64,000 nucleotides of DNA. It comes from Actinoplanes sp. NBC_00393. GTDB taxonomy: Bacteria; Actinomycetota; Actinomycetes; Mycobacteriales; Micromonosporaceae. Shown piece by piece: positions 41,347-42,934 of the stretch; the stretch's first letter is position 1, and the number at the start of each line of letters is the position of its first letter. The DNA is taken from contig NZ_CP107942.1 in the NCBI RefSeq assembly GCF_036053395.1, positions 1,268,501-1,332,500 on the forward strand, given 5' to 3'. Under the pieces are notes generated by a model. That model saw only the letters and a program-made list of their open reading frames with translations. It had not been told where the DNA came from and ran no database searches. The translations under genes were made by a program, and so were the position numbers.

Positions 41347-41375
41347 TTGCATCATCGAGACACATCCCTTAGAGT
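41347..41375 (+). promoter_or_regulatory. Candidate promoter of the tRNA-array leader
   Basis: TTGCAT (41347-41352), a 17-bp spacer and TAGAGT (41370-41375). The start site would fall near 41382, about 30 nt before the leader ORF. An alternative TTGACG lies at 41276 without a good partner. The stretch 41260-41346 is AT-richer than its surroundings. Confidence 0.45.
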
Positions 41376-41411
41376 CATCCGCAACCGCCGCACGAAGCGA
41401 GGAGCAAACCG

Positions 41412-41537
41412 ATGCGCCGCTGGCACGCCGAAACGAATCCGCAGCATCTGCTGCTGCCGGATGCGGTCGCCTGTGCCCTCGAGATGCACCAAGAGCAGGC
41501 CCTCAGCATCAAGCCCGTCCCCGGGAGGCGCACCTAG
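41412..41537 (+). CDS. 41-codon leader ORF of the tRNA array
   Basis: ATG 41412 with a strong GAGGAG ribosome-binding site (41399-41404); TAG at 41535-41537. It encodes 41 residues beginning MRRWHAETNPQHLLLPDAV and ending PVPGRRT, using 18 of the 20 amino acids (no Phe or Tyr). Every anticodon of the twelve downstream tRNAs has a cognate codon here: UGG at 4, GCC at 6/20/22/30, ACG at 8, CAG at 11/29, CUG at 13-15, GAU at 17, GCG at 18, UGU at 21, CUC at 23/31, GAG at 24/28, AUG at 1/25, AAG at 34. Codons 35-41 match none of them. The peptide is not a known domain; a sensor role is inferred. Confidence 0.7.
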   Translation: MRRWHAETNPQHLLLPDAVACALEMHQEQALSIKPVPGRRT

Positions 41538-41601
41538 CGCCCGCCGAAGCGCTACAGCGCCGAAGCCGCCTCCCGGATCGGGAAGGCGGCTTCTTTCGTT
41601 T
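41521..41601 (+). promoter_or_regulatory. Attenuator: antiterminator versus intrinsic terminator before the tRNA array
   Basis: Terminator: GAAGCCGCC (41562-41570) pairs with GGCGGCTTC (41585-41593), extended inside by TCCC/GGGA, followed by TTTCGTTT. Antiterminator: CCGGGAGGCG (41521-41530, leader codons 37-40) is perfectly complementary to CGCCTCCCGG (41567-41576), which includes part of the terminator 5' arm. The two structures exclude each other. A ribosome finishing the leader would cover 41521-41530 and allow termination; a ribosome stalled upstream would favour readthrough into the tRNAs 18 nt downstream. The pairings are seen; the mechanism is inferred by analogy with amino-acid operons. 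Confidence 0.7.
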
Positions 41602-41618
41602 CACCGACAATTCCTTAT

Positions 41619-41692
41619 AGGGGTGTGGCGCAATTCGGTAGCGCAGCGGCCTCCAAATCCGAAGGTTGCAGGTTCGAATCCTGTCACCCCTG
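41619..41692 (+). tRNA. tRNA-Trp (CCA), weak anticodon stem
   Basis: Acceptor AGGGGTG/CACCCCT pairs fully. D stem GCGC/GCGC, T arm GCAGG-TTCGAAT-CCTGT. The anticodon loop CTCCAAA has CCA for UGG. In the anticodon stem the first (G/A) and last (C/U) pairs are mismatched, leaving only three pairs. No encoded CCA; a T-run follows (GCTTTTTG). It is separated from the rest of the array by 170 nt. Confidence 0.8.
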
Positions 41693-41762
41693 CTTTTTGC
41701 GTCCCCCGCAGAACATTCTGCGGGCATGGACTCGTCGAGACCTCGGTCTCGGAATTGAGAAC

Positions 41763-41785
41763 TCCACAGTGCGAATGGCATGAGA
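41763..41785 (+). repeat. 23-nt inverted repeat, left copy
   Basis: Begins TCCACAGTGCGAATGGCA and ends GAGA. It is the reverse complement of 42818-42840 with one mismatch in 23 (at 41781). The two copies enclose all array tRNAs except Trp and Met. Confidence 0.85.
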
Positions 41786-41826
41786 AACCCGCCGCCGGCG
41801 CCAGCACGGGCCCGCCGCGGGAACCA

Positions 41827-41859
41827 CGCGCCGCCCGGGTCACGACCCCGGGCGGCGCG
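41827..41859 (+). other. 13-bp perfect GC hairpin before tRNA-Ala
   Basis: CGCGCCGCCCGGG (41827-41839) pairs perfectly with CCCGGGCGGCGCG (41847-41859) around a 7-nt loop, ending 3 nt before tRNA-Ala(GGC). There is no T-run. It could be a processing signal, a pause or terminator-like element, or a recombination site. Two smaller hairpins, CCCGCAG/CTGCGGG (about 41705-41724) and CGAGAC/GTCTCG (about 41734), lie upstream. Confidence 0.65.
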
Positions 41860-41862
41860 CCT

Positions 41863-41935
41863 GGGGCCGTAGCTCAGCAGGAAGAGCGCCGCTGTGGCAT
41901 GGCGGAGGTCGCCGGTTCGATCCCGGTCGGTTCCA
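41863..41935 (+). tRNA. tRNA-Ala (GGC)
   Basis: Acceptor GGGGCCG/CGGTTCC includes the G3-U70 pair that defines alanine identity; discriminator A. D stem GCTC/GAGC, T stem GCCGG/CCGGT. The anticodon loop is GTGGCAT: anticodon GGC for GCC, with an unusual purine (G) at position 32 and T at 38. No encoded CCA. Confidence 0.88.
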
Positions 41936-41986
41936 CACGAAGCATGCCCACCGAGTTCACACGGCAGAACACCGGTGGGCACACAT

Positions 41987-42061
41987 GGACCCGTGGAGCA
42001 GCGGAACGCTCGTCGCCCTCTCAAGGCGGAGACGCCGGTTCGATCCCGGTCGGGTCTACCA
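41987..42061 (+). tRNA. tRNA-Glu (CTC)
   Basis: Acceptor GGACCCG/CGGGTCT, D stem GAGC/GCTC, anticodon stem TCGCC/GGCGG with loop CTCTCAA (anticodon CTC for GAG), T stem GCCGG/CCGGT. Discriminator A; the CCA end is encoded (42059-42061). Confidence 0.9.
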
Positions 42062-42071
42062 CAACCAGCAG

Positions 42072-42144
42072 TCCGAGATGGTGCAACTGGCAGCACGTCC
42101 GCCTCTGGAGCGGAAGGTTGGAGGTTCGAGTCCTCCTCTCGGAG
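42072..42144 (+). tRNA. tRNA-Gln (CTG)
   Basis: Acceptor TCCGAGA/TCTCGGA, D stem GTGC/GCAC, anticodon stem TCCGC/GCGGA with loop CTCTGGA (CTG for CAG), T stem GGAGG/CCTCC. Discriminator G. No encoded CCA. Confidence 0.92.
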
Positions 42145-42160
42145 CACACACGCAAGACAC

Positions 42161-42234
42161 GTCCTCGTAGCCCAACTGGCAGAGGCGCCGTCCCGAGGAG
42201 GCGGCCAGTGCGGGTTCGACTCCCGCCGAGGACA
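42161..42234 (+). tRNA. tRNA-like gene with GAG anticodon (Leu codon CUC), C33, no long variable arm
   Basis: Acceptor GTCCTCG/CGAGGAC, T stem GCGGG/CCCGC and anticodon stem CCGTC/GGCGG are well formed. The loop is CCGAGGA: anticodon GAG, but position 33 is C instead of the nearly universal U. Leu tRNAs normally have a class-II variable arm; here it is only 5 nt. Either a non-standard Leu tRNA or a damaged one. Discriminator A. Confidence 0.7.
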
Positions 42235-42239
42235 CGCCA

Positions 42240-42315
42240 GCCGGCGAGGTTCCCGAGGGGGAGCGCCCGACTCGTAATCGGGACCCGGTCGGTTCGACTC
42301 CGACCGCCGGCTCCA
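42240..42315 (+). tRNA. tRNA-Thr (CGT)
   Basis: Acceptor GCCGGCG/CGCCGGC, D stem GTTC/GAGC, anticodon stem CCCGA/TCGGG with loop CTCGTAA (CGT for ACG), T stem GTCGG/CCGAC. Discriminator T, CCA encoded (42313-42315). Confidence 0.92.
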
Positions 42316-42333
42316 TACCGATGGAGTTCACCT

Positions 42334-42415
42334 GCGTTCGTGGCGGAAATGGCAGACGCGCCGGCCCCAGGTGCCGGTCCCGCAAGGGGTGGGGGTTCGA
42401 CTCCCTCCGGACGCA
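42334..42415 (+). tRNA. tRNA-Leu (CAG) with C33
   Basis: Acceptor GCGTTCG/CGGACGC, Leu-type D arm, anticodon stem CCGGC/GCCGG, class-II variable arm (TCCC...GGGG), T stem GGGGG/CCCTC. The loop is CCCAGGT: anticodon CAG for CUG with C at position 33 in place of U. Discriminator A as in Leu tRNAs. No encoded CCA. Confidence 0.85.
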
Positions 42416-42420
42416 CTCAT

Positions 42421-42493
42421 GGGGTCATAGCTCAGCTGGAAGAGCGTCCCGCTCGCACCGGGAAGGTCCGGAGTTCAACTCTCCGTGGCTCCA
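42421..42493 (+). tRNA. tRNA-Ala (CGC)
   Basis: Acceptor GGGGTCA/TGGCTCC with the G3-U70 identity pair, discriminator A. D stem GCTC/GAGC, anticodon stem TCCCG/CGGGA with loop CTCGCAC (CGC for GCG), T stem CGGAG/CTCCG with an unusual TTCAACT loop. No encoded CCA. Confidence 0.9.
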
Positions 42494-42520
42494 CTGCGGC
42501 CCGCATCAGCGGGCCGCCAT

Positions 42521-42592
42521 GCCGCCGTAGCTCAGAGGGAGAGCACCCGACTGTCGATCGGGGAGCCGCGGGTTCGAGTCCCGTCGGTGGCG
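42521..42592 (+). tRNA. tRNA-Asp (GTC)
   Basis: Acceptor GCCGCCG/CGGTGGC, D stem GCTC/GAGC, anticodon stem CCCGA/TCGGG with loop CTGTCGA (GTC for GAC/GAU). Discriminator G as expected for Asp. No encoded CCA. Confidence 0.9.
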
Positions 42593-42611
42593 CCGACGTC
42601 ACTTCTGCCAA

Positions 42612-42687
42612 CCGCCGTTAGCTCAGCTGGTAGAGCTACCGATTCTTAATCGGCAGGTCGCAGGTTCGATCCCTGCACGGCGGACCA
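42612..42687 (+). tRNA. tRNA-Lys (CTT)
   Basis: Acceptor CCGCCGT/ACGGCGG, D stem GCTC/GAGC, anticodon loop TTCTTAA (CTT for AAG), T stem GCAGG/CCTGC-like. The outermost anticodon-stem pair (position 27-43) is an A/C mismatch. Discriminator A, CCA encoded (42685-42687). Confidence 0.88.
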
Positions 42688-42689
42688 GG

Positions 42690-42728
42690 CCCGGATCACA
42701 GGTGCGGGTTCGACTCCCGTCGATCACC
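42690..42728 (+). pseudogene. tRNA remnant (3' half only)
   Basis: A good T arm (GCGGG-TTCGACT-CCCGT) and a 3' acceptor strand CGATCAC are present, but no complementary 5' acceptor, D arm or 5' anticodon stem. A TCACA just upstream could be the 3' part of a Val(CAC)-type anticodon loop. Probably deleted during array rearrangement. Confidence 0.55.
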
Positions 42729-42732
42729 TCAT

Positions 42733-42813
42733 GGCCTTGGTGGGTCCCGGGTGGGGCCGCCCGCCTGCAACGCGGGTCCTTCGGGCAATTCGGTTCGACT
42801 CCGACCTCGGCTT
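42733..42813 (+). tRNA. tRNA-Cys-like (GCA), degenerate acceptor
   Basis: D arm GGTC/GGCC and anticodon stem CCCGC/GCGGG are good; the loop CTGCAAC carries GCA for UGC/UGU. The acceptor stem has two internal mismatches, the T stem has four pairs and the variable region is about 12 nt, longer than in normal Cys tRNAs. It may be non-functional or highly diverged. Confidence 0.6.
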
Positions 42814-42817
42814 CGGC

Positions 42818-42840
42818 TCTCCTGCCATTCGCACTGTGGA
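42818..42840 (-). repeat. 23-nt inverted repeat, right copy
   Basis: TCTCCTGCCATTCGCACTGT and three more bases: reverse complement of 41763-41785 with a single mismatch. It lies between the Cys-like and Met tRNAs. Confidence 0.85.
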
Positions 42841-42847
42841 TCTGCTC

Positions 42848-42918
42848 GGCGGCGGGGCGTCGGTGCCCAGCCGGCCCTCATAAGGCTGGACCGCCCGGTT
42901 CGACTCCGGGCGCCGCTA
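42848..42918 (+). tRNA. tRNA-Met-like (CAT), short D arm
   Basis: Acceptor GGCGGCG/CGCCGCT, anticodon stem CGGCC/GGCTG with loop CTCATAA (CAT), T stem CCCGG/CCGGG are sound. The D arm forms only about three pairs, with extra bases before the anticodon stem. CAT could be Met or, if lysidine-modified, Ile(AUA). No encoded CCA. Confidence 0.7.
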
Positions 42919-42934
42919 CACATCCACGTGACGA

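What the first reader, a model, noticed from the sequence alone, without database searches (positions are those of the whole stretch)
41412..41618. Ribosome-controlled attenuator placed before a tRNA gene array
Seen: a 41-codon ORF with a strong ribosome-binding site; an intrinsic terminator (9-bp stem plus inner pairs, U-tract) 24 nt after its stop and 18 nt before the first tRNA; and a 10-bp perfect complement between the last leader codons (41521-41530) and 41567-41576, overlapping the terminator 5' arm. This is the geometry of amino-acid operon attenuators, where stalling in the leader allows readthrough. Here the controlled product is not a biosynthetic enzyme but tRNAs. I know of no described system with attenuated tRNA arrays of this kind.
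Basis: partly seen in the sequence, partly recalled or inferred. Interest (0 to 1): 0.95.

Follow-up and report, generated by a model that had tools for sequence, protein, structure and literature searches.

The report
tRNA cluster switched by matching leader
In Actinoplanes and related soil bacteria a tiny open reading frame just before a cluster of tRNA genes contains codons that those very tRNAs read, and together with two alternative RNA hairpins predicted after it, it would likely let the cluster be transcribed mainly when one of those tRNAs runs short.

Summary
A 41-codon leader ORF, an alternative antiterminator helix and an intrinsic terminator precede an 11-tRNA array. The same layout precedes tRNA arrays elsewhere in the genus (Actinoplanes), at three more sites in this genome (two small arrays, one single tRNA), in other genera of the family and in one further family.

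Here all 11 tRNAs have a readable codon in the ORF. Over 46 leader/array pairs, 96% of an array's amino acids occur in its own leader, against 63% after shuffling the pairs (0 of 20,000). In 33 pairs from other genera it is 97% against 83% (0 of 20,000). The match is confined to the ORF's reading frame, and related leaders and arrays tend to gain or lose amino acids together.

Best reading: a self-sensing attenuator. Shortage of any tRNA of the array stalls the leader ribosome, the antiterminator forms, and the array is transcribed. Layout and codon match are shown. The switching is inferred: no RNA data were available, and it must be kinetic, because the complete free transcript favours the terminator. 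I found no published case in an open-access library.

The parts
41347..41375 (+). Predicted promoter: TTGCAT (41347-41352), 17-nt spacer, TAGAGT (41370-41375), ending 36 nt before the leader ATG
   Evidence: Pattern TTGnnn-N16-19-TAnnnT found upstream of 41 of 46 leaders, against a mean of 0.84 (at most 5) in 500 mononucleotide shuffles
41400..41404 (+). Ribosome-binding site AGGAG of the leader ORF
   Evidence: Sequence; spacing 7 nt
41412..41537 (+). Leader ORF, 41 codons, MRRWHAETNPQHLLLPDAVACALEMHQEQALSIKPVPGRRT; holds a readable codon for each of the 11 array tRNAs (10 of 11 by exact Watson-Crick codon)
   Evidence: reading-frame control over all leaders
41521..41530 (+). Antiterminator, first strand (last sense codons of the leader)
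   Evidence: Exact complement of 41567-41576; duplex dG -25.5
41567..41576 (+). Antiterminator, second strand; overlaps the terminator 5' arm
41562..41602 (+). Intrinsic terminator: hairpin 41562-41593 and T-rich tail 41594-41602
   Evidence: dG -25.5; covariation in relatives
41619..42919 (+). tRNA array: Trp(cca) Ala(ggc) Glu(ctc) Gln(ctg) Leu(gag) Thr(cgt) Leu(cag) Ala(cgc) Asp(gtc) Lys(ctt) Met(cat)
   Evidence: ARAGORN; Rfam tRNA at gathering score for 9 of these 11
41755..41785 (+). rRNA-leader-like element TTGAGAACTCCACAG (41755-41769) running into the 5' arm (41763-41785) of a long-range stem
   Evidence: likeness to an rRNA leader rests partly on recall
42818..42840 (+). 3' arm of the long-range stem: 23 nt, 96% complementary, 1032 nt between the arms; lies before the last tRNA (Met)

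Best explanation
The 41-codon ORF at 41412-41537 and the hairpins predicted behind it are likely a ribosome-controlled transcription attenuator for the tRNA array at 41619-42919, whose 11 tRNAs all have a readable codon in the ORF, so that a ribosome stalled for want of any one of these tRNAs would let RNA polymerase read into the array. Steps: (1) RNA polymerase starts about 30 nt before the ORF (predicted promoter). (2) A ribosome translates the leader behind it. (3) If all codons are read quickly, the ribosome reaches the stop codon and covers the last codons, which form the first strand of the antiterminator; the terminator then folds and transcription ends before the first tRNA (inferred from geometry and from folding with that stretch masked). 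(4) If the ribosome stalls upstream because a tRNA is missing or uncharged, the last codons are free, the antiterminator forms before the 3' arm of the terminator is made, and the array is transcribed (inferred; the choice must be kinetic). (5) The array then supplies the missing tRNA, which restores termination: a feedback loop with an OR gate over the tRNAs of the array (inferred). Shown directly: the layout, its recurrence before other arrays, the codon match, its confinement to one reading frame, and joint gain and loss of amino acids in leader and array. An rRNA-leader-like element and a long-range stem behind the terminator would help transcription and processing of the untranslated array (inferred).
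For: Window: 11 of 11 array tRNAs have a readable leader codon, 10 of 11 exact. 46 pairs (45 of the genus, 1 of another family): coverage 0.964 vs 0.632 shuffled, sd 0.025, 0 of 20,000; the 38 leaders chosen by rule alone 0.966 vs 0.633, 0 of 20,000; one representative per leader cluster, arrays of at most 10 amino-acid types, 10-12 pairs per draw: 0 of 4,000 in each of 10 draws. 33 pairs from other genera: 0.971 vs 0.831, 0 of 20,000. Length-matched random leaders: 0 of 5,000 in both sets; the other frames of the same DNA cover 0.56 and 0.52 (0.64 and 0.63 in other genera). Amino acids with a tRNA in the array occur in the leader in 345 of 362 cases, those without in 188 of 558 (other genera 297 of 306 and 205 of 354). 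Codon level: 403 of 453 array tRNA species have a readable codon; given the amino acid, 0.794 vs 0.710 (0 of 3,000). Joint gain/loss in 14 disjoint related pairs: 31 same direction, 3 opposite, 41 no change (sign p 4e-7); other genera, 8 pairs: 8, 0, 30. Examples: MITTRRVTVVPTPRPHTIPVIRPTGRWRG before Pro Thr Ile Arg Pro Val His, 22 of 22 tested residues in the set; own genome MNRQLSLSRGSLLTLRWRD before Arg Leu Ser. Terminator in 46 of 46, 9-28 nt after the stop. With a ribosome footprint on the stop codon the terminator forms in 45 of 46 and no leader pairs its end with the terminator arm (0 of 46 with 5 or more pairs); with a footprint a third of the way in, 41 of 46 do (transcript cut at the terminator loop).
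Against: No transcript, ribosome or 3'-end data. Masking the stop region removes the antiterminator by construction, so these foldings show consistency only. In the complete transcript without a ribosome the terminator wins at equilibrium in 32 of 46 leaders, in this window with probability 0.95, so the switch must work by order of synthesis. 10 of 46 free cut transcripts have fewer than 5 such pairs. Antiterminator covariation is weak on alignments and modest by energy within types (210 and 25 of 20,000). Leaders hold many amino acids with no tRNA in the array (188 of 558; in this window 8 types: R, H, N, P, V, C, S, I), explained here by lost tRNAs but also compatible with a general sensor. 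50 of 453 array tRNA species lack a readable codon, mostly Val(cac) 13, Ala(cgc) 8 and Met 6. Four of 50 regions with tRNAs gave no leader.
Confidence: 0.82

Rival explanations
1. A general translation-stress attenuator: any slowing of the leader ribosome (antibiotics, starvation) opens the array, and the codon content of the leader has no specific role.
For: Same anatomy; actinobacterial whiB7 is described as having a uORF that answers to several ribosome-targeting antibiotics and to amino-acid starvation (passages of PMC12121999); the Anabaena tRNA array is activated by antibiotics that target translation (abstract and one section of PMC10272220); leaders also hold codons without a tRNA in the array.
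Against: It does not predict the match between leader codons and array tRNAs, nor its limitation to one reading frame, nor joint gain and loss.
Confidence: 0.12
2. The leader encodes a small functional peptide with its own terminator, and the tRNAs are transcribed from elsewhere.
For: An ORF with a good ribosome-binding site; 57% identity to one further database protein of 43 aa.
Against: Peptides vary widely apart from the end that forms the antiterminator; the match to the array would be unexplained; in 22 of 46 cases the first tRNA follows the terminator stem within 25 nt, too close for a separate promoter; promoter-like hexamers lie before the leader.
Confidence: 0.03
3. A tryptophan-only attenuator (one Trp codon near the start, first tRNA is Trp), of the trp-operon kind.
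For: The window leader has Trp at codon 4 and tRNA-Trp comes first.
Against: Some arrays and leaders lack Trp altogether, for example Arg-Leu-Ser and Glu-Thr-Ser; the match extends to many amino acids.
Confidence: 0.02

Closest known systems
Ribosome-mediated transcription attenuators of amino-acid operons (trp, his, leu, ilv leaders; recalled)
   Same: Short leader ORF, terminator, competing antiterminator overlapping the end of the ORF, codons that sense the product's lack
   Different: The product is a set of tRNAs, not biosynthetic enzymes; the leader samples many amino acids at once and its codon set follows the tRNA set; no general sign of a protector hairpin that would keep the operon shut when the leader is untranslated (36 of 46 free cut transcripts pair the leader end with the terminator arm)
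whiB7 uORF attenuator of actinobacteria (passages of PMC12121999; details recalled)
   Same: uORF-dependent control that answers to translation stress, in the same phylum
   Different: Controls a transcription factor gene; no tRNA array and no codon matching known to me
Anabaena trn operon (abstract and one section of PMC10272220) and Mycobacterium tRNA arrays (passages of PMC5966550)
   Same: Supernumerary tRNA array; in Anabaena repressed normally and activated by translation stress
   Different: In Anabaena the control is a repressor (TrcR) on the promoter; here a leader ORF and terminator
T-box riboswitches (recalled)
   Same: Sense tRNA state and decide between terminator and antiterminator
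   Different: No T-box match in Rfam; sensing here would be by a translating ribosome

Membership tests
Ribosome-mediated transcription attenuator | Short leader ORF with ribosome-binding site | tested here: met
   reading-frame-specific signal; translation itself not measured
Ribosome-mediated transcription attenuator | Intrinsic terminator between leader stop and first product gene | tested here: met
   46 of 46; covariation 0 of 500 shuffles
Ribosome-mediated transcription attenuator | Alternative helix that excludes the terminator and whose first strand a ribosome at the stop codon would cover | tested here: met
   Found in 46 of 46, matched vs mismatched strands 0 of 20,000, but selected for, weakly covarying on alignments, and outcompeted by the terminator at equilibrium in 32 of 46 complete transcripts
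Ribosome-mediated transcription attenuator | Leader codons correspond to the regulated product | tested here: met
Ribosome-mediated transcription attenuator | Stalling raises readthrough in vivo | not testable with these tools
   No expression data available
Amino-acid biosynthesis operon attenuator | Controlled genes are biosynthetic enzymes or transporters | tested here: not met
   tRNA genes follow; leuA lies upstream, a penicillin amidase gene downstream on the other strand
T-box riboswitch | Match to the T-box covariance model | tested here: not met
   No T-box among Rfam matches at gathering score or at E up to 1
Long tRNA array (L-array) | Many tRNA genes in tandem, diverged from the housekeeping set | tested here: met
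   11 tRNAs; those of this genome's arrays with a same-anticodon housekeeping gene among the loci examined have alignment scores of 0.53-0.84 per base with it
Long tRNA array (L-array) | Silent normally, induced by translation stress | not testable with these tools
   No expression data

The most novel reading that the evidence does not exclude
A self-auditing tRNA operon: the leader ORF is a checklist of the codons read by the operon's own tRNAs, each codon being a separate sensor, so that loss of any one tRNA (for example by a tRNA-cutting toxin) opens transcription of a spare set; sensor and spare set shrink and grow together in evolution. It would be the first codon-specific attenuator whose controlled products are the tRNAs it senses.
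Probability: 0.74. Interest if true: 0.95.

Novelty: new variant of a known kind. Interest (0 to 1): 0.92.

Why it matters
Supernumerary tRNA arrays occur in several phyla and what they are for is mostly open. A leader that lists the tRNAs of its array says what the array is for: replacing particular tRNAs when they run out. It gives a direct, codon-by-codon test of that idea, a natural series of dozens of codon sensors for tRNA shortage, and a clear example of a regulator and its products co-evolving. It would extend ribosome-mediated attenuation from enzymes to the decoding machinery itself.

Tried and rejected
Rfam: nothing but tRNAs at gathering score. At E up to 1 the leader region has a match to BcKCsr2 (24.6 bits, gathering 40, E 0.0017) and weaker ones to epsC and SNORD48; all are below the curated score and I did not pursue them.

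Mobile origin: the type-B pattern is absent from viral contigs (the type-A pattern was not tried there). Plasmid and phage BLAST hits of the leader-plus-tRNA query cover only the tRNA-Trp part in the five rows listed of each (15 and 230 records).

Wider spread: model R2 matches 211 of 300 genomes of the family at E <= 0.01 (65 of them of the genus; 26 of 44 genera), 54 of 397 of the order at E <= 0.001 (7 of them in other families) and 3 of 394 of the class at E <= 0.0001 (this genome and two of the same family). These tallies were not checked for tRNAs genome by genome. Of 11 regions fetched from other families, five carry arrays of 5 or more tRNAs and a sixth one tRNA at a contig end, all in family f13; the remaining five have no array beside the match.

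rRNA leader comparison: the SSU rRNA model found nothing in this genome. A pattern search gave six matches, one of them exact; that one looks like an rRNA leader by recall and is followed by a masked stretch, so the likeness is not proven.

Dropped before the counts: ten of 60 regions without tRNAs; six tRNA clusters (four regions) without a leader; one single-tRNA cluster (L138). Nine downstream clusters were merged into five arrays.

Selection: the 60 regions are 54 around model R1 matches (covering the 52 strongest of 82 listed and four weaker ones, three of which one search had shown beside tRNAs) and six around tRNA clusters. 46 of 60 gave a pair. Eight leaders were picked by hand; without them the result is the same. 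The 40 regions come from the other-genus rows, almost strictly strongest first for the first twenty, then for spread over genera: 33 have two or more tRNAs, 4 have one, 3 have none.

Full report
What is there. The leader ORF at 41412-41537 has 41 codons and AGGAG 7 nt before its ATG. Its last sense codons (41521-41530) are exactly complementary to 41567-41576, which overlap the 5' arm of a strong hairpin (41562-41593) followed by TTTCGTTTC. tRNA-Trp starts at 41619 and opens an array of 11 tRNAs found by ARAGORN. Upstream is leuA, downstream on the other strand a penicillin amidase gene. Promoter-like hexamers (TTGCAT, 17 nt, TAGAGT) end 36 nt before the ATG; such hexamers occur before 41 of 46 leaders, against a mean of 0.84 in shuffles.

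It recurs. A DNA search of 40 genomes including this one found the leader region in four others of the genus, each before tRNA-Trp and a differing array. A covariance model from six such sites (R1) matched 52 of 67 genomes of the genus at E <= 0.1; weak matches need not be real. I fetched 60 regions. Fifty hold tRNAs and 46 give a leader ORF and an array, 45 of them from the genus. This genome itself has three more such sites: G000:C1:1078988 (MSFYPSYEPGRWRC, before Pro Ser Met Tyr), 2300153 (MQWQASFVRPRWCVG, before a single Gln tRNA 322 nt after the terminator) and 5513847 (MNRQLSLSRGSLLTLRWRD, before Arg Leu Ser). The other two records, a Halomonas and a Halothece assembly, were not examined.

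The codon match. For each pair I asked which fraction of the amino acids of the array's tRNAs occurs in the leader, leaving out the start codon and the last six codons, which are bound by the antiterminator. The mean is 0.964; after shuffling which leader goes with which array it is 0.632 (sd 0.025; 0 of 20,000 reach the observed value). With only the 38 leaders chosen by rule it is 0.966 against 0.633. With one leader per similarity cluster (10-12 small arrays per draw) each of ten draws gives 0 of 4,000. Random leaders of the same lengths give 0.667 (0 of 5,000), and the other two frames of the same DNA give 0.56 and 0.52. In codons, 403 of 453 array tRNA species have a codon they can read in the leader; given the amino acid, 79.4% of leader codons are read by the own array against 71.0% for arrays swapped within the amino acid (0 of 3,000; relatedness was not controlled in that test). 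In the window all 11 tRNAs have a readable codon, 10 by an exact Watson-Crick match, Asp by wobble. 33 of 46 arrays are covered completely, and 24 of 33 in the second set.

An independent set. A second model (R2, from 24 leaders of a second subtype) was used on other genera of the family. Of 40 fetched regions 33 have two or more tRNAs; there the coverage is 0.971 against 0.831 (0 of 20,000), with frame controls 0.64 and 0.63. The most telling case is a leader MITTRRVTVVPTPRPHTIPVIRPTGRWRG before tRNAs for Pro, Thr, Ile, Arg, Pro, Val and His: all 22 tested residues belong to that set.

Joint gain and loss. In 14 disjoint pairs of related leaders, an amino acid whose tRNA is in one array only differs between the leaders in the same direction 31 times, in the opposite direction 3 times, and not at all 41 times; in other genera, 8 pairs, it is 8, 0 and 30. 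Asp is lost from both leader and array in L097 compared with L096, Thr in L122 compared with L110; Cys is in leader and array of L111 and in neither of L112. Some of the pairs are short or distant, so the number of independent events is smaller than the counts. tRNA order agrees with the majority order in 2405 of 2465 pairwise comparisons, so the arrays look like remnants of one ancestral array.

The two helices. All 46 have a terminator (dG -16.7 to -25.5) starting 9-28 nt after the stop. Matched terminator arms pair better than mismatched ones (-22.3 vs -19.5 kcal/mol) and so do antiterminator strands (-26.7 vs -24.2), 0 of 20,000 each. Within the two subtypes the antiterminator signal is smaller (210 and 25 of 20,000). 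On alignments the terminator covaries (17 double changes, 0 of 500), while the antiterminator core is nearly invariant and shows little covariation. Because the rule for choosing leaders asked for a complement of at least 7 nt, the existence of this helix is partly built in.

Folding. With the transcript cut at the terminator loop, the leader end pairs with the terminator arm (5 or more expected pairs) in 36 of 46 free transcripts, in 41, 40 and 38 of 46 with a ribosome footprint one third, half and two thirds of the way in, and in 0 of 46 with the footprint on the stop codon; the terminator forms in 45 of 46 in that last state. The masked state removes the helix by construction. In the complete transcript without a ribosome the terminator wins at equilibrium in 32 of 46, in the window with probability 0.95. 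So the helix is plausible as an early, kinetic product and not as the final state.

How it would work. Complete translation hides the first antiterminator strand and lets the terminator form; stalling upstream frees it and lets polymerase into the array. As the codons are those of the array's own tRNAs, the array answers to a shortage of what it makes. Spare tRNAs would help most when tRNAs are destroyed or inactivated, less under amino-acid starvation; that the trigger is tRNA damage is my inference. The array tRNAs are not recent copies of housekeeping ones: where a same-anticodon gene was among the loci examined the alignment score is 0.53-0.84 per base.

Behind the terminator. An element such as TTGAGAACTCCACAG in the window, TTCTTTGACAACTCCACAG in L140, resembles an rRNA operon leader by recall and by one exact pattern match in this genome. 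It runs into an arm whose complement lies near the array's end: 23 nt, 96% in the window. In the 35 of 46 arrays where a loose pattern gave a candidate (some of them chance matches inside tRNAs; for the window the script looked beyond the last tRNA and missed its arm) the longest complementary run averages 12.9 in matched and 10.2 in shuffled pairs (0 of 20,000). This is probably a processing stem round the array.

Literature. Nine searches in an open-access library listed no paper that by title or start of abstract describes an attenuator before tRNA arrays. Seen: abstract and one section of PMC10272220 (Anabaena array repressed by TrcR and activated by translation stress); passages of PMC5966550 and PMC6582537 (mycobacterial arrays; terminator, leader and attenuat- have no occurrence in either), PMC10950094 (E. 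coli glyVXY terminator/attenuator, lying after the tRNAs), PMC3364876 (Actinoplanes SE50/110, 99 tRNAs) and PMC12121999 (uORF sensing). The 2021 paper on the cryptic Anabaena tRNA operon was not held and is known to me only by recall. Most subscription papers are outside this library, so a prior description cannot be excluded.

Noticed in passing
L104 and L108 (genomes G078, G055): Two leader/terminator units in tandem before one array; passing both terminators would need both to be relieved.
   Followed up: no
window 42700-42815: Between tRNA-Lys and tRNA-Met the sequence resembles a decayed tRNA-Cys by eye; the leader still has one Cys codon.
   Followed up: partly
L252 and L258 (Curtobacterium plasmids): In another order, a 43-44 codon ORF and a long hairpin precede a tRNA array that starts with tRNA-Trp; all 10 and 9 amino acids of the array parts seen occur in the ORF, but my terminator rule found none there. 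Possibly an independent or distant case.
   Followed up: partly
L254 (Mycolicibacterium plasmid): An rRNA-leader-like element (CTTTGAGAACTTCACAG) stands just before the first tRNA of an array for which no leader ORF was found by my rule.
   Followed up: no
L255 (Rossellomorea plasmid): A terminator-like hairpin starts 60 nt before the first tRNA of an array in a Bacillota plasmid.
   Followed up: no
window 41763-41785 and 42818-42840: Long-range inverted repeat enclosing nine of the eleven tRNAs (Ala to Lys), as in rRNA operon processing stems.
   Followed up: yes
window 41619-41693: The anticodon stem of the array tRNA-Trp has apparent mismatches compared with the housekeeping tRNA-Trp; the relatives L002, L004 and L005 keep the same stem.
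   Followed up: no
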